Origin: Anagrus nilaparvatae
Taxonomy: Eukaryota; Arthropoda; Insecta; Hymenoptera; Mymaridae
Direction of reading: 5' to 3'
DNA: 64,000 nt
Assembly (NCBI GenBank): GCA_022575985.1
Contig: JAKSXM010000247.1
Location: forward strand, 9,509,501 to 9,573,500
The translations under genes and the position numbers were made by a program. Shown here piece by piece: positions 25,565 through 64,000 of this stretch. The notes beneath the pieces were generated by a model, which saw only the letters and a program-made list of their open reading frames with translations, had not been told where the DNA came from and ran no database searches. Positions within the stretch are counted from its first letter, which is position 1. Each line of letters starts with the position of its first letter.

Positions 25565-27078
25565 TTGGTTCTAGGTGACTCCGAGAATCAAGGTTTGGCA
25601 TACTGTAGTCTCGCATGTCAAAAATGACAAAAATGGAGTGTTAGCCAAAAAGGAAGTCATTTTACCCTTAGAAGGCAGTTTCGATCTAGGGAGACGGTTT
25701 TTCTGTATGGTTATGTGGGACTCAACCTCAAATTTGTATCTGGGGTTGCCCAGATATACACGATTGAGGAATTACAATACCCACTAAACTCCCCACCCTC
25801 CTGCATTTATGACAATATCATAGAATCCGGACCGGGACTCCCTGTTTAGGTATTACTTCGGTCCGGAAACAATGCAGCCCAGGCATTTCTTCGCCATACC
25901 CTGTCAATAAAGGAGGAGATTTTCCTACGAGAGGAAACCTTCCTCCTTTTTTCCAATCAGTGTCGCCCGTACGTACTCTGCCACACTGTACCAGTTAGCG
26001 GCACTGCGCAGCATTTCCGGGACGACTACTTCCGGCCTCCATTCATCGAAGGGCGGTCGCCCTTCAGCGAAGCGAGGACACCCAAAAAAGGTGTGCTCAG
26101 CGGTATCCAGCTCGCCCGGGCAATGCAAGCATTCCGGAGATGTCACCTTGCTCCACTTGAAAAGCATATCGCGGAAATAACCGTGACCAGTTAGGAACTG
26201 TGTGAGGTAGAAGTCTACCTCTCCATGATCACGATTCATCCAGCTTTCCAAATCGATGATAAGGCGGTGCGTCCAACGTCCCCTCGGGTCACCATTCCAC
26301 CTATACTGCCAACATTCCATTGTGCGGGAGCGAGCGCGAACGGAAGCTACGTCGCGCTCTTCTTCCCCACGGTTATAGATCGCCTGCCTTTCCAAGGCAA
26401 GCAGGTCGATGGGAATCACCCGAGCCACCACCTGGATCGCTGGCTCTGATACTGTCTTGTACGAGCAAGCGATTCGAAGTGCCCCCTGCCTCTGTACTGC
26501 CTTTAGTTTCTTGCAGTACTTTTTTATGCGGACATTGTCCGCCCACACCTCTGCACCGTAGAGCAAGATGGAGTTAACTGTCGTCATCAACAGCCTCCTC
26601 TTCTCAGATCTGGGACCGTCGATGTTCGTCATTAGCCACGAGAGGGACTTTGTCACCCGGCCAGCCTTTTCACAGGCCTGCTGGAATTGTCTATTGTAGG
26701 TCAACTTGTTATCCAAGAAGACCCCCAAATATTTGACCGATGGTTTGGTCTGGATCATAAGGGGATTACCTCCGTCATCAAAGCTGATGCCGAATATGGT
26801 ATCAACCCTTCTCCGGGTCAGAAGGACAATCTCCGTTTTCGGGACTGCCAGTCTTAGTCCGTGATCCGACATCCAGCTATTGATAAGGCGCATGGCCTCA
26901 TCCAAGGTATTCTGCTGGTCCTCTGGCTCTCGAGCTGTTATGGTTAGAGCAACGTCATCCGCGTATCCGATCATGGAGCATCCATCCGGGAGCTCAATCT
27001 TTAGCAAGCCGTCGTAAAAGGCATTCCACAGATCAGGACCCAGAACTGAACCCTGCGCTATGCCTGCGCTTAATACTT
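25565..27078 (-). mobile_element. 5'-truncated R1-clade LINE
   Basis: A GC-richer block sits in AT-rich surroundings. The open frame enters at about 27,078 inside the reverse transcriptase (GIAQGSVLGPDLWN) and runs to the stop at 25,925 with no interruption. It contains the catalytic YADD box (GYADDVALTI), the thumb region (VKYLGVFLDNKLTYN) and a C-terminal CCHC knuckle, CLHCPGELDTAEHTFFGCP, as in R1-like elements. The 3' UTR extends to about 25,565. The intact frame and sharp composition boundary suggest a recent insertion. 5' truncation is normal for target-primed reverse transcription, so the element cannot move by itself. Confidence 0.85.
25925..27078 (-). CDS. Reverse transcriptase C-terminal part of R1-like LINE (partial)
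   Basis: About 384 uninterrupted codons read in from the truncation point without an authentic start; internal ATG codons are not meaningful starts. Domain order is RT palm (QGSVLGP, then YADD), RT thumb (ILLYGAEVWADN) and the zinc knuckle in the last 70 residues. The upstream palm motif and the endonuclease are missing. The product, if made, would be inactive alone. Confidence 0.85.
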
Positions 27079-27622
27079 TACAAAGTTAAAAGTATATGAA
27101 TTGTATTCAATTTGAAAGCATTATAGACAGACATGTGAATTTCATGATTTAATTTTAAAAAAATAAATTAAAAAGATGAAAACAATTTCTTTTCAATTTA
27201 TTTACTTATAAAAATGTTACATTTTATTGACATGTTTTTATTAAAAACTTTTTTTCAAGATAATTTCTTAATTTAATTATAATTAATAGCAATATTTACT
27301 CTTTAGAGAAATTGAATGTTACAAAATTTTCATAAATACTGATTTTCTTTCCAAGCTATTTTTATTATTGTTCATTAATTTGTACATAAGAATTTTGTTA
27401 AAAAATGTTGTCAGATTATACTTATAATCAACTATGATTATTATGTTAAAATAATTAGTTTCAAACACATGATAGATGCAAACATAAATTATAAAAAATA
27501 TTATTACATTATAAACTACGTTTTAAGTATTGAAATGTATTGAAATTTTAATTTAAAAAAAAATTACATGCAAAAAATTTTCATAAACATATCTTAATAC
27601 TATATATATTTGAAAATTTATT

Positions 27623-31893: not shown

Positions 31894-33353
31894 ATGGACT
31901 TCGAATATGAAAGTTTATGCTTAGCTTCTATGCTTGAATTATTTCTATATGCTCTTATAATGTGTACAATTTATAAAAAAAGTACAGAAATCTACAGGAG
32001 ATGGTACATCAAGCCTCATTTAACTGAAGAGATTAGAGATAAAGTTGGTGCATATACTACATTATTCAAATATTTTTATCTACATAATCATGAAGAGTTC
32101 ATTGCACTGACAAGAATGACTGTCGATCAATTCGATTTAATGTACGAGCTTGTAAGACCAAAGTTATCAAAACCTTATACTACAGGAAGGAAACCATTGT
32201 CCAGCGATATAAAACTTGCTGCAACCTTACAGTAAATAATATTACATTATATTTTTTAAAACATAGAGTATATAGCTTTCTAAATAATGAAAAATATGTA
32301 TTTAAATATAGCTTTTTAGCTCAAGGAACAAATGTTCGAGATAATGCATGGATTTATCGTATTGGGCTTAGTACAATGTATAAAATTATACCACAAGTAC
32401 TGGAAGCAATTATTGAAGCATTAGGAGAGAAGTACCTACAGTTTCCAACGGCTGAACAATTCATAACAATATCAAACAACATGTATCACCATTGGCAAAT
32501 GCCAAATTGTGTTGGAGCTATAGATGGGAAGCATATGAGAACAAAAGCACCTGCACACAGTGGAAGCTTATACCTCAATTATAAGGGATACTTTAGTTAA
32601 GTTTTGATGGCTGCTTGTGACGCTTTTCATAGATTTACATGGGTGCAAGTTGGAGATTATGGTAATAAAAAAATAATACCCTAAATTGAAATTTACGTTC
32701 AAAATTTGGGCTTTTCTTCATTTCTCTGACCAAGTATCAATTAATGTACTAATACAACATATAAAATTATCTAATATTTTTTTTTCTAGGTCACTTAAAC
32801 AAAGCTGCAGTATTCAATAACTCCGATCTTGGTATTGCTTTACAACACCACTCAGCAGAACTTTTACCAGAAAGTCAATATTTACCTGGAACTCAAATAT
32901 ATAAAATGTCCTTACTATTTTGTTGCTGATGCAGCTTTTGGATTGAAATCTTATTTAATGAACCCATATGCCAGAGCAAACAATTTATCAGATCCTGAAA
33001 AAATTTTTAATTATCGTCTTTCAAGAGCTAGACGCATTATTGAATGCGCTTTCGGTATTCTGGTACGCAAGTGGAGAATTTTAGAGTACTCGATTTATTT
33101 TAAACAGGAAACAAATGAAAATATTGCCATAGCATTAGTTTTAATTCATAATTTTTTAATCACTAGTGAGTTATCATTAGAACCAAATGAAAGGCAATAC
33201 TATGATCCTGAAAATGTAAAAGAGGAAGAAGAAGAAATAGAAGAAGGGCCTACTTTTACAGTAGATCCTGATGCTATTTTAATACGCAATCTCTTAACCG
33301 AATATTTTAAGTCAAACACAGGATGCGTTGATTTCCAGTGGGATAAAATATAA
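31894..33353 (+). pseudogene. PIF/Harbinger transposase (DDE nuclease), 3 exons, disabled
   Basis: Exons are 31,894-32,231, 32,312-32,661 and 32,790-33,353, with GT-AG borders in matching phases. Conserved features in order: a helical N-terminus ending FDLMYELVRPKL; first catalytic Asp in CVGAIDGKHM; second Asp in QVGDYG; NNSDLG; LPGT; FVADAAFGLKSYLMNPY; and the last acidic residue in RARRIIECAFGILVRKWR. Two lesions are clear. TAA at 32,598-32,600 interrupts KGYFS*VLMAACDAF, and a one-base frameshift lies between LPGTQIY and CPYYFVAD (about 32,885-32,915). The C-terminal tail is Glu-rich. The protein would cut and join transposon ends in the nucleus; this copy cannot be full length. Confidence 0.9.
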
Positions 33354-46548: not shown

Positions 46549-47990
46549 TTGTAAATGTAAATGTAAATATTCTTTATTTTGCAATTGAACAAAAATACAG
46601 TCATAAAATATACATCATATAGTAAATAATAGATAATCAACATAAATAATTTTTAATAAGTATAAAATATACGTAATAACATTTAAAATTTTGAATAATA
46701 AATTAAAATAAAGTAAATTAGATACTAAATGCTTATGTTCTAAATATGATTTAATAGTATACTATAAGTATCACAGTCGATTTAATTGCATATGCATGGT
46801 AAAGTCAGTCTTATATTGATTAAAAAAAAAAAGTAAAATGCTTTAAAATAAAATAGAATAATAGGAATTTGTCTTGCAACGAGAAGTGACAAGACATTCT
46901 TAGACTAATGTTAAGGATCAAGTGTAAAAAGATATTTATATACAGCAGCTTTAAATGAATTAAGAGATGGAAGAAACCTAATTTCTGCTGGTAGGGAGTT
47001 CCAAAGCCTGGCCCCTTTGTACCGAAAGGTGTTAGTACCACAGTTTTTCGTGTTAGGTATGGTGATTTCCTTTGAGCGCAAACCACCCCTTGCATTTTCT
47101 TTAGGAGTATACTTGATGAAAGATTCTCTCAAGTATAAGGGCTGATGTAACCGTAGGATTTTGTAAATGATTATGGCCAAAAAGTAATGCCTGCGTGAGT
47201 CAGTGCATAACCATCCTAACTTGCGTCTAAAAGGGGTTATGTACTCGTCTTTGCGTATGCCATAAATATACCTCAGTCCAGAATTGCATAGTCTTTGTAA
47301 CCTTGCTTTTAGTGTATTGCATGCATTCAAGTAAACAACTGAGCAATAATCAAAATGAGGTATAATTAATGCCTGTACCAGTCTTGTACGTAATGTTTCT
47401 GTAGTACAATGTCTGATGAATCGTAGAGTATATAGAACGCGATTTACTTTTTTTTCAATAGTTGTAACGTGACTGTTCCAGTTGAGTCTGCTGTCAAGTA
47501 TTACTCCTAGACTTATCACCTCATCTACAAAAGGAGTAATGATGCCATTTCCTAAGTCTATTCCCGACAAATTTAAGCTCTTTAAACGATTGACAAAGGT
47601 TCGCGTGCCAATATAAATAGCTTTCGTTTTTCCATGATTGAGCCGAAGGGAGATACTTTCAGCCCAAGCAGAGATGTTGCAAGCAGTTTTTGATAATAAA
47701 GCAATGGCCTCAAGTACTTTTTCAGGTGATACTTGACAGTAGACTTGTAAGTCGTCTGCATAAAGTATGTGTCGTACGTTAGATGGTAAGTGTTGTTTTA
47801 CATCATTAATATACAGACAAAACAGCAAGGGTCCGAGTACTGAACCTTGGGGCACCCCAAGATTAACACTAAGTGGATCAGAGCGAGATGATTTAGAAAT
47901 AACTTGTAAACTTCTACTTTGCAAGTAGGATTTGATCCATAATAGTGACATCTTGGAAAATCCCATTTCCATCAACTTAAATTATTGGTA
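46549..47990 (-). mobile_element. 5'-truncated Jockey/CR1-group LINE
   Basis: The frame runs from about 47,985 to the stop at 46,911. The 3' UTR ends in short tandem ATTTAC units (46,549-46,570 on the plus strand as TGTAAATGTAAATG). RT motifs are NLGVPQGSVLGPLLF, LYADDLQVY and ISLGVILDSRLNWNSH. The C-terminus carries the F...GARLWNSLPAEIR.LPS...FK signature of Jockey/CR1-type elements. The endonuclease and N-terminal palm are missing. A 3' microsatellite tail instead of poly(A) fits this group. Confidence 0.8.
46911..47985 (-). CDS. Reverse transcriptase C-terminal part of Jockey/CR1-like LINE (partial)
   Basis: About 355 codons are open without lesion, entering in the RT fingers/palm (MEMGFSKMSLLWIKSYLQSR) and reaching the catalytic YADD. 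No genuine start codon is expected because the copy is 5'-truncated. Downstream come the thumb (IIPHFDYCSVVYLNACN) and the terminal GARLWNSLPAE motif. The intact frame implies either a recent insertion or constraint; recent insertion is simpler. Confidence 0.8.
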
Positions 47991-48141
47991 AGGTTAGTAA
48001 ATCGGGTTGCTGAATTATAAATTATAAACAATAAATAAGTAAGGGAATTTTTAGAGAAGTTATAAAAATATTTTTCAATACTTTTGTGAGATAAAAATAC
48101 TAAAATATTATACGATCATTAAAAAAATTATTTAATTACTC

Positions 48142-48804
48142 AATAAATAAAATTTCAGGTAAACTTCATTACTCAATATTTTCATGTATAAACATGAATA
48201 TACAGAAATTTTATCTTTTATGACCAACGTAACCCAATTAAATGTGATATTCTTATTAATTTAACCAATAAATTGGTTAATTTTAAACTAATAGGTACGT
48301 AACAGTGTTTCGCCATAGTGTATTAGGTTGGCTCGTCAGTAGACTCCTAATACACCTTATCTAGACACCGTTTAATTATTTAAAAAACAAAAAATATTAA
48401 AATTATAAAATTAATTTTTTTTAAAAATTTTTTTTAAAAATTTGTGTAAGTACTTGCCTCGCACATGCTTTCAAAACGACTAAAAATGCTGGATTGTGTA
48501 TACCGTTAGAAAGGAGAAGTTTAGTTTTCTCTTTCTAATTTAAATACAGCTGGCATTTTTATTCTATTAATTTCATAAAAATTACATTCAAAGTTTTATT
48601 AAATTTAATAAGGCTAAAAATAACACGAACTGATAAATCAGTATCAAAAAATGTCATAGCCTTATTTTTGAAAATAAATTTTCATCAAAATTTGCTTATG
48701 TTAAAGCTTCTAATCAATAAATAAAATTTCTGGTAAACTTCATTACTCAATATTTTCATGTATAAACATGAATATACAGAAATTTTATCTTTTATGACCA
48801 ACGT
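48142..48804. repeat. 91-bp direct repeats 572 bp apart
   Basis: Nearly identical copies at 48,142-48,232 and 48,714-48,804 contain GTAAACTTCATTACTCAATA and the palindrome TTCATGTATAAACATGAA. The intervening 480 bp show no coding sequence. This may be a small element with terminal direct repeats or a duplication. Confidence 0.7.
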
Positions 48805-48849
48805 AATTTTTATTTTATTTTGTTTAATTTTTTTATTTTTTTTTTTTTT

Positions 48850-55099: not shown

Positions 55100-56375
55100 T
55101 TCCTATAGTAAGTAGTTTATATTTTTTTTAGATGTAGTATCTAATTTTTTCTTATGAAAGTACCAATATCTGAAAATATGATTATTACTCGATATCTCCA
55201 ATCTGAGATTAAATTTTTGAACTTTTTCTTCTCAAAATCTTTTGCCTACAAAAATAAAAAAAAACAATATTTTTTTCCTTTTTGAAAGCTGTACCTCATT
55301 TTTTTCTTTGGGAGTACTAGTTTTTGAAATATGATATTTCAAATTAATCTGTATTAATTCTTGAGAAAGATCTAAATTATGTGAATTTGTATGCGAAATT
55401 TAATTTTCTTTTATATGTTTATCAATAAAAATTATTATTAGTATACAAATTTATTAAATTTTTTGTTATACAAAAAAAAATTTTTTGAAGACCGATATCG
55501 ATATTATCGACATATCGAGCTCTTTGATTTCATCGTATCGAAAATAGGACATCAATATCGATAAAATATCGAAATGTCGTGGAACTCTAGAAATATCCTT
55601 TACAGTCAATTTTTTGGATCTGAAACTTAATTTTTTGAAAAATTTTTTTTTCTTTAAAATTTTTTACATAAATAAATAAAAATAGCAATATTTTTTTCTT
55701 TTTGAACTTAGTACCTTATTCATTTCTATGAAAGTACCAATATCTGAAAATATGGTTTTTACTCTATTTCTCGAATCTGATACTCAATTTTTTGAAAATT
55801 TTTTGCATAAAAAAATTAAAAAAACACTATTATTTTTTTTATTTTTGGACATAGTATACAATTTTTGTCTAAGAATTTACTAATATCTTAAAGTACGATT
55901 TTACTCCATAACTCCAAATCTAATAAATAATAAAAAAAAAAAATTTTTTCTCATAATTTTTCAAAAAATATTTATATAAAAAAACACAATTATTATTTTT
56001 TTTTAGACGTAGTACCTAATTTATTTCTATAAAAGTATTAATACACAGAATTAATGTTTTTTCTCGATATTTCCAATCTAATACTTAATATTTTGAAAAT
56101 TTTTGTCTAAAAAATAAATTTTTCCCTTTAAAAAATACAAAAAACACTAATTTTTTTTTCTATTCGGATGTAGAACATAATTTTTTTCTATGAAAGTATT
56201 AATTTTTTATGTAAAAATCCTAATTTTTTCTAAGAGGTATTAAACTGGCAATATCAAGGAATAGATCATTTTTAGTTTTTCTTATGACATTATACTTTGT
56301 TAAGTAAAATAGACCATTAAGAACATTTTGTCATTGCTAATGAGGAACCATTGTGCCAATTTTTTGACAGCGTAT
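55100..56375 (+). repeat. Second family A body ending in the GAGGAACC terminus
   Basis: The same tandem unit series as 52.8-54.7 kb, more diverged, finishes with ATTAAGAACATTTTGTCATT and GAGGAACCATTGTGCC at about 56,314-56,358. Confidence 0.7.
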
Positions 56376-56810
56376 TTTTATAAGCTTGAATGGTTTTGAA
56401 TACTGAAAAAAAAATTTTTAAATATACTTTCAAGTACTGTTCTGCATTCTGGTAATGATTTTTTAGCTATTTTTTAAAAATATTGGCATTGGAAATTTAT
56501 TAAGTGTTTTGCTGATTTAATTTCCAATGGTCATAAAATTTTATTTATGAGCTTCGTTGGTTTTGAATACTGAAAAAAAAGTTTTAAAATATACTTTCAA
56601 GCACTGTTCTGCATTCTGGTAATGAATTTTTAGCTATTTATTAAAAGTATTGATTACCGGAACTAAGCCAACGTATTGCTAGATTCACTCCCGTTGCACA
56701 AAATTATTTTTTTATGTAAAAAATTATTTAAATTTTCTTATAAAATTAATTCTTGAAAAGAATTATTTTTAATAAGAAATTTACGCACATAACGGAACAA
56801 ACAAAATATT

Positions 56811-56897
56811 AATCGGTCTATTTCGGCTCTTACGGAAATTAGTGTGAGCCATCATCAGTGTAATGCACTAATTTCCGCGTAATTACAGATAAACCAA
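56811..56897 (-). ncRNA. Hammerhead ribozyme A1 (intact core)
   Basis: On the minus strand, stem III pairs GGUUUAU with AUAGACC (extended by U-G and U-A). The cleavage triplet is AUC, cut between plus positions 56,888 and 56,887. Stem I is UGUAAU/AUUACA. The core CUGAUGA is at 56,858-56,852. Stem II is GGCUC/GAGCC after one unpaired U. GAAA is at 56,824-56,821. All invariant core bases are present. Loop I contains GGAAAUUAGUG, perfectly complementary to CACUAAUUUCC in loop II. Structure read by eye, not tested. Confidence 0.7.
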
Positions 56898-57280
56898 AAA
56901 AATTTGATCTTAAAAGGGTTTATACCTACCAAAAAAGACAAACTAAACATGTGCCTCTGAGACTTCCATCTTCTATGAACACACATATTGACCTAAAACA
57001 ATTAAAAGATTTCCCCCTCTCGGGAAGAATCTTTTCGTTGTTTTAGGAGAAAGATGACAAAGCAACTTTCTAGATTAGGCCAGTGAATTGAGCTATGACC
57101 GTTTTAATTAATATTATTCAAAATTATTTAAAATTTTGAAAAAATTGTATTTTAAAAATACAATTCACGTTCCTATGAATTTTAAATAAAAAATTATTTA
57201 AATTTTCTTATAAAATTAATTCTTGAAAAGAATTATTTTTAATAAGAAATTTACGCACATAGCGGAACAAACAAAATATT

Positions 57281-57367
57281 AATCGGTCTATTTCGGCTCT
57301 TGCGGAAATTAGTGTGAGCCATCATCATTGTAATGCACTAATTTCCGCGTAATTACAGATAAACCAA
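57281..57367 (-). ncRNA. Hammerhead ribozyme A2 (core C3 changed to A, probably inactive)
   Basis: Same helices as A1, 470 bp away, but the core reads AUGAUGA because of a single change of the essential C3. Loss of C3 normally abolishes self-cleavage. The other differences fall outside the core. Confidence 0.65.
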
Positions 57368-57509
57368 AAAAATTTGAGCTTCAATGGTTTTAAATACTGA
57401 AACAAAGAGTTTCAAAATTCACTTCTAAGCATTGTTCTGTATTCTGGTAATGATTTTTTAGCTATTTTTTAAAAATATTGGCATTGGAAATTTATTAAGA
57501 GGAGGTCGA

Positions 57510-58550
57510 GGTTATGCTTCTTTCTTGTGGGTGACTTCAGCGCCAGAGTTGAGCGGTCAACTCTGGAATCGCTTATATGTTTTGCGTGATCAAAGCCAAT
57601 GATCAACGATTATTAAAAAATGAAATAAAATTATAAATAAACATGCATCATAAGAATATAATTGTTGAAAATATTAATAATTTTTTTAAATATAAAATAA
57701 ATATACTTTAATTATTCTTCAACATTATTTGCATGCATATTATTTTAGGTTTCTTACAATGTATAAGATTAATATTTTTATTATTTGGATTTACCAGTTT
57801 TATTTATTTTATAAAATCATTGTATATAATCAAAGGCTCAATTCCAATAAAATAAATTGATTTATACGTAGTTTTAATTTTTTCTTAGGTTTTTAGTTTC
57901 ATTTTCTTTTTTTAACACTATAATTTTTTTAAGCTGTATATATTTTTTTATTTCTATATGATAAAAAGAAAAATTGAAAAAATTAAAAGTATATACCCCG
58001 ATAACACACCTTGTAGATAGTAGCAAAAAAAAGTAAAGCCTTGCCAGCACAAGCGATTGATGTATTTTTTCTTCAAAGTTTACGCACTTCTAATAATTTT
58101 TTTAAATATTCAAAATCCTTGCTGTTAACTTGCTGTCAATATTTAGAAACGAACTTTTCTTAAATGCTTAAGGTAATATTTGTCGCATATTCGGACGCAT
58201 CTTTGCGTAAACTTTAAGTAAAGCATTTATTCTTATATAATAGCTTAGATTTTATAAATTTATAGGTAGTTTGCGTAAACTTTTAACAAATCATTTATTA
58301 AACATTTTTACCTATATTTACATAAATTTATTTACATATGTAATAAAAGGTATTAGTTTTTTAAATGATTGTAATTTTACTGCAAGTTTAGTGCATTTAT
58401 CAAATGAGAAACTTTTTATTTACAAACATTTGTTCGCTATACATACATATCAGTAATTATGAATTATTATACAATTAAATTATTTATGTAATTATACAAT
58501 ATAAATTTCACGACGAATATTAATAAATGTTTCAATTAATATATTTTTGC
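57510..58550. other. Intergenic, no gene recognised
   Basis: A GC-richer 80-bp patch near 57,500-57,590 holds the hairpin CCAGAGTTGAGCGGTCAACTCTGG (24 bases, stem CCAGAGTTGA). The rest is AT-rich and non-coding. Confidence 0.4.
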
Positions 58551-59640: not shown

Positions 59641-61295
59641 AATTTCTACCATTGCATAAAAATATATCTAATTAAAAAAATAATTAAATGCAATCATTGT
59701 ATAAAAATATTTGAAATTCCAACTTTTCTATAAAACAGGAGACTGTTAGAAAAAAATTTATAATGGCATATAGTTTCTGGTAAAGTCAATAAAAAAATAC
59801 AATTTTCTTATAAAACAAGACAAATACAAAAAAAATTTCAATGCAATCATTGCATAAAAATTTTTGAAATTAAAAACACATTTTAATGCAATCATTGCAT
59901 AAAAATTTTCTCAATGCAATTATTGCATACAAATATTTGAAATTCCAACTTTTCTATAAAACAGGAGACTGTTAGAAAAAAATTTATAATGGTATATAGT
60001 TTCTGATAAAGTCAATAAAAAAATACAATTTTCTTATAAAACAAGAAAAATACAAAAAAAATTTCAATGCAATCATTGCATAAAAATTTTTGAAATTAAA
60101 AACACATTTTAAAGCAATTATTGCAGACAAATATTTAAAATTCCATTTAATAATAATATTAATTTTCATAAATATTCATTTTCATAATCATTGCATGAAA
60201 ATATTTAAAAATACAATTATCATATAAAACAAGGACACTATTAGAAAAAAATTTAAAATGATGTATAGTTTCTGCTAAAGTCAATAAAAAAATTTCAATG
60301 CTATCATTGCATAAAAACTTTTGAAATTCCAACTTTTGTATAAAACAGTATAATATTAGAAAAAATTTAGAATAGCGTATAGTTTCTGCCAAAGTCAATA
60401 AAAATATTTCAATGTTAACATTGCATAAAAATATTTGAAATCCCAATTTTTATATATAACAAAGCATTATTCAAAAAAATTTAGAATGGAGTAATGTTTC
60501 TGCTAAAGTCAATAATATTATTTCAATGCAATCATTGCATAAAAATATTTGAAATTCCAACTTTTGTATAAAACAGTACACTATTAGAAATTAAAAAATT
60601 TAGAATAGCGTACAGTTTCTGCTAAAGTCAATAAAAATATTTCAATGCAATCGTAGCATAAAAATATATGAAATCCCAACTTTTGTATAAAACAGGACAC
60701 TATTCGAAAAACATTCAGATTGACGTATAGTTTCTGCCAAAGTCAATAAAAATATTTCAATGTTAACATTGCATAAAAATATTTGAAATCCCAATTTTTA
60801 TATATAACAGAGCATTATTCAAAAATATTTAGAATGGAGCACAGTTTCTGCTAAAGTCGATAATAATATTTCAATGCAATCATTGCATAAAAATATGTGA
60901 AATCTTAACTTTTGAAAAAAACACAACACTTTTCAAAGAAATTTAGAATGGCATATAGTTTCTGCTAAAGTCAATAAAATATTTTAATGCTATCATTGCA
61001 TAAAAATTTTTCAAATTCCAACTTTTGTATAAAACAGGACACTATTCGAAAAACATTCAGATTGATGTATAGTTTCTGCCAAAGTCAATAAAAATATTTC
61101 AATGTTAACATTGCATAAAAATATTTGAAATCCCAATTTTTATATATAACAAAGCATTATTCAAAAAAATTTAGAATGGAGTACAGTTTCTGCTAAAGTC
61201 AATAATAATATTTCAATGCAATAATTGCATAAAAATATTTGAAATTCCAACTTTTGTATAAAACAGATGTATAAAACAGACACTATTCGGAAAAA
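59640..61295. repeat. ~115-bp satellite array, left block
   Basis: The monomer contains ATTTCAATGCAATCATTGCAT, AAAAATATTTGAAATTCC, CAACTTTTGTATAAAACAG, a CACTATT motif and TAGTTTCTGCTAAAGTCAAT. A variant with AATGTTAACATTGCAT recurs at 60,411, 60,759 and 61,101, i.e. every ~345 bp (three monomers), showing higher-order structure. All open frames here are repeat artefacts. Confidence 0.9.
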
Positions 61296-62312: not shown

Positions 62313-63322
62313 GAAAACATTCAGTTTGACGTATAGTATCTGCCAAAGTGAATAAAAATATTTCAATGTTAACATTGCATAAAAATATTTGAAATCCCAA
62401 CTTTTATATATAACAAAGCATTATTCAAAAAAATTTAGAATGGAGTACAGTTTCTGCTAAAGCCAATAATAATATTTCAATGCAATAATCGCATAAAAAT
62501 ATTTGAAATTCCAACTTTTGTGTAAAACAGTACACTATTAGAAAAAATTTAGAATATCGTACAGTTTCTGCTAAAGTCAATAAAAATATTTAAATGCAAT
62601 CATTGCATAAAAATATTTGAAATGTTAACTTTTGTATAAAACACAACACTATATTCAAAAAAATTTAGAATGCCGGATAGTTTCTGCTAAAATCAATAAA
62701 ATTATTTCAATGCTATCATTGCATAAAAACTTTTAAAATTCCAACTTATGTATAAAACAGGACACTACTCGAAATACATTCAGATTGACGTATAGATTCT
62801 ACCAAAGTCAATAAAAATATTTCAATGTTAACATTACTTAAAAATATTTGAAATCCCAATTTTTATATATAACAGAGCATTATTCAAAAAAATTTAGAAT
62901 GGAGCACAGTTTCTGCTAAAGTCGATAATAATATTTCAATGCAATCATTGCATAAAAATATGTGAAATCTTAACTTTTGAAAAAAACACAACACTTTGCA
63001 AAAAAATTTAGAATGGCATATAGTTTCTGCTAAAGTCAATAAAAATATATTAATGCAATAATTGCATAACAATATTTGAATTTCCAACTTTTGTATAAAA
63101 CAGTACACTATTAGAAAAAATTTAGAATAGCGCACAGTTTCCGCTAAAGTCAATATTTGGTCAATAAATTCAAAAAATATTCTAAACAAATATTTCAATG
63201 CAATCATTGCATAAAAATATATGAAATCCCAACTTTTGTATAAAACAGGACACTATTCGAAAAACATTCAGATTGACGTATAGATTCTGCCAAAGTCAAT
63301 AAAAATATTTCAATGTAATGGT
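62313..63322. repeat. ~115-bp satellite array, right block
   Basis: Same monomers as the left block. The AATGTTAACATT variant occurs at 62,365 and 62,824 (459 bp, four monomers), so the higher-order period is not constant. The array stops abruptly at CAATGTAATGGTAG. Confidence 0.9.
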
Positions 63323-63439: not shown

Positions 63440-63600
63440 TACAACTCACCTGAAAATAATCATATGCTACAGTATACTCTCGTGAACGTGCGATAGAACC
63501 TTCTGAGGTACATTCGGAGAACATTCGCGCCGAATACAAATTTAGAATATGAGTCCGAATGTACTTCAGAATATTCTGTAGAACATTAAATGATTATTTT
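63440..63600 (-). repeat. Inverted copy of the dispersed repeat at 45.64-45.83 kb
   Basis: TCATATGCTACAGTAT, TAGAACCTTCTGAGG and GAACATTCGCG are shared, in reverse order and orientation. Confidence 0.5.
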
Positions 63601-63787
63601 GTTTTTTTTTAAATAAACAAAGAATATGCAAAATAAGGGTATATATTCATAATAAGTTTAACATATTATTATTATAAAAATAAAGTAAAATATATACATA
63701 AATGTATATCAGTTTAGATTCCATGTACCAAATATATCATAGATATGAAGAAATAAATTTCTTATTTTCCATATTAATAAGTACATC

Positions 63788-63860
63788 AATGGTATTTCAC
63801 TCTGATACATTGAGTGAGATCATCAGTAAGAAACTCAATGTATCTTTCTTATATACCATT
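63788..63860 (-). ncRNA. Hammerhead ribozyme B
   Basis: On the minus strand, stem III is AAUGGUAU/AUACCAUU (8 bp). The cleavage triplet is AUA, cut between plus positions 63,852 and 63,851. Stem I is UAAGAAA/UUUCUUA (7 bp) closed by the 11-nt loop GAUACAUUGAG. The core CUGAUGA is at 63,826-63,820 and GAAA at 63,798-63,795. Stem II is weaker: ACUC/GAGU with extra nucleotides, or CUC/GAG with a U-U pair. Loop I is exactly complementary to CUCAAUGUAUC in the stem II arm. It is unrelated in primary sequence to ribozymes A1 and A2. TTATTCAACTA recurs at 63,861 and 63,985, so a repeat may continue beyond the window. Confidence 0.6.
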
Positions 63861-64000
63861 TTATTCAACTAGATGTGTCTTTGATTTCTTATATACTCTT
63901 GCAAAATCATTTCTCTTGCGAGAATATCTAACAAATCTAATCACATCGAATGCCATGAATTTGGTGCTTTGAATGTGATATACTTTATTCAACTATAACA

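What the first reader, a model, noticed from the sequence alone, without database searches (positions are those of the whole stretch)
56811..57367. Pair of hammerhead ribozymes in 191-bp direct repeats: a retrozyme-like element
The sequence shows CUGAUGA and GAAA cores with three correctly placed helices on the minus strand, duplicated with a 470-bp period. From established knowledge, hammerheads in repeated ends belong to Penelope-like elements and retrozymes. The stem III-open order is unusual for animals, where type I dominates.
Basis: partly seen in the sequence, partly recalled or inferred. Interest (0 to 1): 0.92.

Follow-up and report, generated by a model that had tools for sequence, protein, structure and literature searches.

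The report
Insect retrozyme-like elements with type III hammerheads
A short repeat in an insect genome encodes an RNA predicted to cut itself, and its relatives look as if they were copied back into DNA from RNA circles or multimers; their ribozymes are of a type that published animal elements of this kind were not reported to carry, with an unusually long lock between two of their loops.

Summary
Two copies of a 213-bp repeat, 470 bp apart, carry a stem-III-open (type III) hammerhead on the minus strand. Only copy 1 (56813-56897) has an intact core; copy 2 has C3 changed to A. Copy 1 has an extra U after A9. Rfam does not call it (12.7 bits; gathering 48.5), but a descriptor finds three such motifs in the window and six in 400 shuffles.

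The other two (48301-48372, 63788-63860) belong to different families; a fourth lies in L032. That helix either docks the active ribozyme or makes a competing hairpin.

Families 1, 2 and 4 are dispersed and tandem (units about 470, 574, 500 nt). In families 1 and 2 the 3' ends are fixed away from the cleavage site, 5' ends scatter, copies cross the cleavage site for up to 3.6 units, and inverted copies join head-to-head. I read them as non-LTR, retrozyme-like elements copied from circular or multimeric RNA. Family 3 is a palindrome with 2-bp duplications. Self-cleavage and circles are untested.

The parts
56710..57392 (-). Family 1 element: 1.45 units of a 470-nt repeat; RNA-sense 3' end at 56710 (unit position 178), 5' truncation near 57392 (unit 436)
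   Evidence: own genome: 42 matches, with 40 of 254 candidates scored; exact core+L2 23-mer 83 times, control 0
56813..56897 (-). Hammerhead copy 1 (intact core, extra U at 56851); cleavage expected between 56888 and 56887
   Evidence: RF00008 12.7 bits only
56832..56878 (-). Loop 1 strand 56866-56878 and loop 2 strand 56832-56844: 13-bp complementarity
   Evidence: 98.0% of cells paired over 34 distinct sequences, 2 pairs with changes on both sides; shuffled loops 0/5000 as long
57283..57367 (-). Hammerhead copy 2, core broken (C3 to A at 57328)
48137..48806 (-). Family 2 element: 1.17 units of a 574-nt repeat; this copy's 3' end is at unit 227, not at the family's usual 119-130
   Evidence: 306 matches of a 22-nt 3'-end pattern (two two-way letters) in the genome, control 0
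48301..48372 (-). Family 2 hammerhead (canonical core, no extra nucleotide; L1-L2 11 bp including one G-U); cleavage expected between 48364 and 48363
   Evidence: RF00008 34.2 bits, E 4.1e-06, gathering 48.5
63445..64000 (.). Left part of the family 3 palindrome, which continues to 64531 (L098)
   Evidence: about 1087 bp, arms 93.5% identical, precise ends, 2-bp duplication
63788..63860 (-). Family 3 hammerhead (stem I 7, stem III 8, L1-L2 11 bp); cleavage expected between 63852 and 63851
   Evidence: model R1 48.4 bits, E 3.3e-11; no Rfam hammerhead match up to E 10

Best explanation
The finding is a truncated multimer of a non-coding, non-autonomous, retrozyme-like element. Proposed cycle: (1) a tandem genomic copy is transcribed from the minus strand; (2) each unit folds a type III hammerhead, helped by a long loop 1-loop 2 helix, and cuts itself; (3) monomers are ligated into circles, where the same complementarity refolds into a hairpin that hides the core; (4) a reverse transcriptase supplied in trans, most plausibly of Penelope-like type, starts at fixed internal sites of the RNA, primed from one or both ends of a cut target, and runs round the circle for a fraction to several units; (5) when both ends prime, the two cDNAs join head-to-head. 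Shown here: motifs, pairing, fixed 3' ends, variable 5' ends, copies that run across the cleavage site, head-to-head joins, copy numbers. Inferred: cleavage, circles, the enzyme, the refolding switch.
For: Hammerhead: and RF00008 for families 2 and 4. Four families of different sequence keep stems I, II, III, core and an 11-13 bp L1-L2 complementarity. 3' ends of single-orientation loci: family 1, 21 of 28 at 170-183 and 7 of 28 at 243-256; family 2, 26 of 29 score-chosen loci at 119-130, and 17 of 18 among the loci chosen by a 3'-end string (not independent evidence). 5' ends scatter; in the 20 family 2 loci chosen by 3' end, 9 cross the cleavage site, 10 do not, 1 runs off the locus, and none starts within 2 nt of the cut (nearest: 4). 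Spans exceed one unit in 12 of 34 family 1 and 29 of 52 family 2 loci, up to 2088 nt; only 1 of those 29 is among the 20, the others having been chosen by score, which favours length. Inverted arrangements: 11 of 86 loci, all head-to-head; family 4 neighbours within 1.2 kb among the places listed: 10 head-to-head, 1 tail-to-tail. Units within a locus differ less than between loci (0.023 v 0.047 family 2; 0.040 v 0.060 family 1). 39 GIY-YIG matches above cut-off (150 of 1091 candidates scored), frames up to 885 aa.
Against: No RNA data. Nine of 38 family 1 cores, copy 2 among them, are broken. For all four families the unknotted minimum-energy fold is the L1-L2 hairpin, not the hammerhead, and pair counts cannot tell docking from hairpin, as both use the same pairs. 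Some family 2 variants lose part of the L1-L2 pairing without compensation (4 to 9 pairs left). Family 1 has an extra core nucleotide, is poorly scored by Rfam and is not found by the family 2 model. Uncleaved multimeric RNA would explain copies across the cleavage site as well as circles do; a Penelope-like protein in vitro mainly used unprocessed RNA (PMC11167929). No target-site duplication clearly above the null for families 1 and 2. The GIY-YIG genes were not read, so a Penelope-like element is inferred from the domain alone. Family 3 does not fit this cycle.
Confidence: 0.74

Rival explanations
1. DNA satellite or DNA-transposed repeat: the hammerheads are passengers and copies spread by rolling-circle DNA, unequal exchange or a DNA transposase.
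For: Long arrays exist (family 4, C79:5862128-5882607). Family 3 is a precise palindrome with a 2-bp duplication at 6 of 6 loci, like a non-autonomous DNA element.
Against: Families 1 and 2 have fixed 3' and scattered 5' ends, the pattern of reverse transcription, in flanks that are mostly unrelated (list cut at about 80 rows). Pairing is kept across four families of different sequence.
Confidence: 0.12
2. The conserved structure is only the long hairpin plus outer stem (a small-RNA precursor or transposase-binding hairpin); the hammerhead is a coincidence of sequence.
For: The hairpin is the minimum-energy fold in all four families.
Against: Hammerhead core plus stems I and II recur in four families of different sequence; 300 shuffles gave no strict hit and 400 shuffles gave six loose ones; RF00008 E 4e-6 and 9e-6.
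Confidence: 0.06
3. Fragments of a Penelope-like element whose pseudo-LTR carries a hammerhead.
For: Penelope-like elements show internal initiation at two sites, use of both target strands, tandem copies and hammerheads (PMC11167929, abstract and main text). GIY-YIG domains occur in this genome.
Against: The 470- and 574-nt units repeat head to tail and have no stop-free frame above 61 aa; hammerheads of Penelope-like elements are described as minimal type I (PMC7761336, passages); these are type III.
Confidence: 0.06

Closest known systems
Metazoan non-LTR retrozymes (PMC7229834: abstract, results part 1 of 3, discussion read)
   Same: Small AT-rich tandem units with one hammerhead each, dispersed; proposed circular RNA intermediate and mobilization by non-LTR or Penelope-like enzymes.
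   Different: Those carry type I hammerheads in units of about 150-450 bp, and most of their circles are predicted to leave the ribozyme free to fold; here the hammerhead is type III and its own loops can hide the core.
Plant LTR retrozymes (PMC4918200, passages; 4-bp duplications as stated in PMC7229834)
   Same: Type III hammerheads, dimeric or multimeric copies, circular RNA template model with cDNA of different lengths.
   Different: No 4-bp target duplications found here; one end is variable rather than an LTR boundary. PBS and PPT were not tested.
Insect and deltavirus-like type III hammerheads (PMC7936874, parts 1-3 of 4 read)
   Same: Type III in insect genomes, loop 1-loop 2 Watson-Crick contact.
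   Different: Those have a GCCR/YGGC contact and an extra capping hairpin on helix I; the termite genomic ones were isolated motifs. Here 11-13 bp, no capping hairpin seen, in abundant elements, mostly tandem.
Pseudoknotted hammerheads (PMC3088659 and PMC11300833, passages)
   Same: Loop I pairs with the loop II side to hold stems I and II.
   Different: The pseudoknots in the passages seen are about 4-6 bp.
Penelope-like elements (PMC11167929, abstract and main text)
   Same: Internal initiation at two sites, both strands cut and extended, tandem copies, hammerhead present.
   Different: Those encode the protein; the family 1 and 2 units have no long frame.

Membership tests
Hammerhead ribozyme | Conserved core CUGANGA ... 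GAAA ... UH with three helices | tested here: met
   Copy 1 and families 2-4; 29 of 38 family 1 and 54 of 64 family 2 copies by the patterns used. Family 1 has an extra U after A9; family 3 a U-U mismatch at the base of stem II.
Hammerhead ribozyme | Score above Rfam's gathering threshold (a database criterion) | tested here: not met
   Window: none. RF00008 12.7 bits family 1, 34.2 family 2, 33.0 family 4, none family 3; gathering 48.5.
Hammerhead ribozyme | Self-cleavage | not testable with these tools
   Needs in vitro transcription.
Type III hammerhead | Open stem III, closed stems I and II | tested here: met
Metazoan non-LTR retrozyme | Type I hammerhead | tested here: not met
   All four families are type III
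Metazoan non-LTR retrozyme | Small non-coding tandem units, dispersed | tested here: met
   Places; frames tested for families 1 and 2 only
Metazoan non-LTR retrozyme | Circular RNA in tissues | not testable with these tools
   No RNA reads available
Plant LTR retrozyme | LTRs with PBS and PPT | not tested
   No PBS or PPT search was made; one end is variable, unlike an LTR
Plant LTR retrozyme | 4-bp target-site duplication | tested here: not met
   No direct repeat clearly above the null at family 1 and 2 ends; family 3 has 2 bp
Penelope-like element | Encodes reverse transcriptase with GIY-YIG endonuclease | tested here: not met
   Family 1 and 2 units have no stop-free frame above 61 aa

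The most novel reading that the evidence does not exclude
A subclass of type III hammerhead lives in several mobile families of one insect genome: an 11-13 bp loop 1-loop 2 helix works as a bistable lock, first docking stems I and II for cleavage of the nascent RNA, then opening the core into a hairpin so that the ligated circle is not re-cut. Circles are then copied from both ends of a cut target, starting at two different internal sites, which yields the head-to-head arrays. Family 3 would be such an inverted dimer that gained a second way of moving as DNA.
Probability: 0.35. Interest if true: 0.85.

Novelty: new variant of a known kind. Interest (0 to 1): 0.72.

Why it matters
[quoted passage not shown] Here are abundant type III elements in an insect whose ribozymes carry a built-in competing hairpin, its pairing kept over four different sequences, which makes that question testable by transcription, probing and mutants. 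The fixed internal start sites and head-to-head joins are genomic traces of how such RNAs return to DNA. Structure-based searches with a related architecture had reported no further motifs in hymenopterans and hemipterans (PMC7936874); long loop helices may be one reason why existing models score such motifs low. The insect order is not known here, so whether this overlaps those groups is open.

Tried and rejected
Rfam over the window, over 56300-57900 and over four short stretches: results told above. Family 2 covariance model R1 over 23 sources: it found family 3 but not family 1; its other weak matches (20 bits and below) were taken as chance or as the hairpin read backwards. Target-site duplications for families 1 and 2: mean longest direct repeat 5.7 v null 5.7 (33 loci) and 5.9 v 5.4 (51 loci), so none claimed. 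A pile-up of family 2 5' ends in unit 22-43 (7 of 20; 12 of 51, which includes those 20) was seen, but the interval was chosen after looking and its cause is unknown. Rare shared variants inside arrays were too few to prove a single template. Viral contigs: 0 matches to two hammerhead patterns. The pattern count for family 3 did not complete. Helitron and LTR readings were set aside because one end is variable. Rows left out: L073 from the end maps; short matches; from the pair counts the duplicates L013, L014, L029 (two copies) and two copies with insertions, one of which also has a changed stem I. Literature searches.

Full report
Setting. The window lies in a 488.7-Mb genome of 393 contigs, at C196:9509501-9573500. 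It is AT-rich, carries a tRNA-Ala and reverse-transcriptase and transposase frames. Every organism name I could read among the listed relatives of one reverse-transcriptase frame is an insect (120 of 194 listed, most without a name), so the host is very probably an insect; the order is unknown.

The observation. The repeat is real: 213 nt, 96% identical, 470 apart. Copy 1 on the minus strand has a full hammerhead with stem III open, with one extra U after A9; copy 2 has lost C3. An extra nucleotide at that place is known to me from a viroid hammerhead by recall only (chrysanthemum chlorotic mottle viroid; the paper I looked for was not held). A strict descriptor had 2 window hits against none in 300 shuffles; a looser one 3 against 6 in 400 shuffles. 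Rfam scores copy 1 poorly.

More hammerheads. The strict scan also hit 48304-48369, and a covariance model built from 15 copies of that family then found 63780-63865 at 48.4 bits, E 3.3e-11. A fourth motif turned up in the flank of a family 1 copy (L032 2347-2423). Families 2 and 4 score 34.2 and 33.0 bits with RF00008, E 4.1e-6 and 9e-6 in focused scans, below its gathering score of 48.5; family 3 does not match Rfam's hammerheads.

Shared architecture. In all four, loop 1 and loop 2 are complementary: 13 bp (GCGGAAAUUAGUG with CACUAAUUUCCGU in copy 1 of family 1), 11 with one G-U (family 2), 11 (families 3 and 4). Shuffling the loops reached the observed length in 0, 0, 0 and 12 of 5000 trials. 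In the window's own family 3 copy the right arm keeps only 8, while both arms of five other copies keep the full length. In family 1, over 38 of 44 aligned copies (34 distinct rows; duplicates L013, L014, L029 and two copies with insertions were left out), 98.2% of cells pair against 27-49% when partners are slid; three pairs have changes on both sides, two of them the adjacent G-C to A-U pairs of one subfamily in the loop helix, so probably one event. The number of such pairs alone does not clearly exceed shuffles (60 of 500 as high), and some family 2 variants lose loop pairs without compensation. The stronger argument is the change of nearly the whole sequence between families with the pairing kept.

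Two competing folds. Without the loop contact the hammerhead is worth -8 to -12 kcal/mol; the best nested fold, the loop hairpin plus stem III, is -19 to -24; hammerhead plus loop duplex, without any steric penalty, is -24 to -31. So the two states may be close, and the predicted folds of circular units of families 1 and 2 show the hairpin form. Whether an 11-13 bp kissing helix is sterically possible was not modelled.

Mobile elements. Family 1: 42 matches with 40 of 254 candidates scored; 83 exact core-plus-L2 strings, control 0. Family 2: 75 matches with 39 of 559 candidates scored; 306 matches of a 22-nt 3'-end pattern, control 0. Family 3: 40 matches, 40 of 488 scored. Family 4: 42 matches, 40 of 748 scored; 419 exact strings, control 0. 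In the rows printed, flanks are alike only in a few duplicated segments (L010/L013/L014, L021/L026, L028/L029) and in shared background repeats (list cut at about 80 rows). Family 1 and 2 units have no stop-free frame above 61 aa on the circle.

Ends. Mapped on a circle that starts at the cleavage site (L073 left out), family 1 single-orientation loci end at 170-183 in 21 of 28 and at 243-256 in 7 of 28 (these include the duplicates L010/L013/L014 and L028/L029; two short second pieces, in L011 and L032, were not counted). Family 2: of 29 score-chosen single-orientation loci 26 end at unit 119-130; the exceptions are the window copy (227) and two at 97. Because that set was chosen by score, which favours length, I took 20 further loci by a 3'-end string, picked by hand from the listed part of the 306 places: 17 of their 18 single-orientation loci end at 121-128, which the choice favours, and one is cut by the locus end. 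Aligned spans are 47-609 nt; 9 cross the cleavage site, 10 do not, 1 runs off the locus, and none begins within 2 nt of the site (nearest at 4). A template cut at the hammerhead should pile 5' ends there. Spans above one unit, up to 3.6 units, need a circle or an uncut multimer. Units within a locus are more alike than between loci, which fits repeated copying of one molecule but also local duplication.

Inverted copies. 11 of 86 loci hold two oppositely oriented pieces; all are head-to-head with 0-5 nt between. In 10 of 11 one arm ends at the usual 3' site, and in 9 of those 10 the other ends further along the RNA. L021 and L026 are copies of one duplicated segment and are counted twice; their two mappings differ (171 and 178; 178 and 219), so the reading of that pair is unsure. 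In family 4, neighbouring core strings within 1.2 kb among the listed part of 419 places are 10 head-to-head and 1 tail-to-tail, with tandem arrays on both sides in some (joins not read). Among family 1's 83 places there are 3 head-to-head (two of them L034 and L037) and 1 tail-to-tail. This is what priming from both ends of a cut target would leave.

Family 3 differs. It is a palindrome of about 1087 bp from 63445 to 64531, arms 93.5% identical in the window's copy, with hammerheads reading outwards. Five further copies are complete, 99.2-99.8% identical to it, with the same ends, and at 6 of 6 loci the two bases left and right, compared by eye, are the same (aa, ca, at, cg, ta, aa). That looks like DNA-level mobility of an inverted dimer; the enzyme is unknown.

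Comparison. Animal retrozymes carry type I hammerheads (PMC7229834, sections named above; PMC7761336, passages); type III motifs are known from insect genomes and from deltavirus-like agents, with a short loop contact, the termite genomic ones as isolated motifs (PMC7936874, parts 1-3 of 4). I found no description of type III retrozyme-like elements in insects in the listings; those searches cover open-licence papers only, and PMC7936874 cites dipteran work in preparation that may have appeared elsewhere. I therefore call this a new variant of a known kind.

Noticed in passing
window 63445-64000 and L098, L099-L103: 1087-bp palindromic repeat with hammerheads in both arms, near-identical copies, 2-bp duplication at 6 of 6 loci; possibly a DNA-mobile inverted dimer.
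   Followed up: partly
window 60186-61267, 62313-63319 and L098 from about window position 64939: Tandem array of about 114-bp units on both sides of the palindrome.
   Followed up: no
window 56377-56485, 56544-56652, 57372-57480: A 109-nt repeat on both sides of the family 1 element, as if the element sat inside an older array.
   Followed up: no
family 2 unit positions 22-43 (L078, L082, L089, L092-L095): 7 of 20 family 2 insertions picked by 3' end start inside the hammerhead; perhaps a stop for the reverse transcriptase.
   Followed up: partly
L073 (C147:1995700-2003200) and C79:5862128-5882607: Long inverted tandem arrays of families 2 and 4, dozens of units for family 4.
   Followed up: no
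window 32799-33353 +: DDE_Tnp_4 transposase frame (Harbinger-like by recall).
   Followed up: no
window 25925-27085 - and 46911-47981 -: Two reverse-transcriptase frames (RVT_1); the named relatives of the first are insects.
   Followed up: partly
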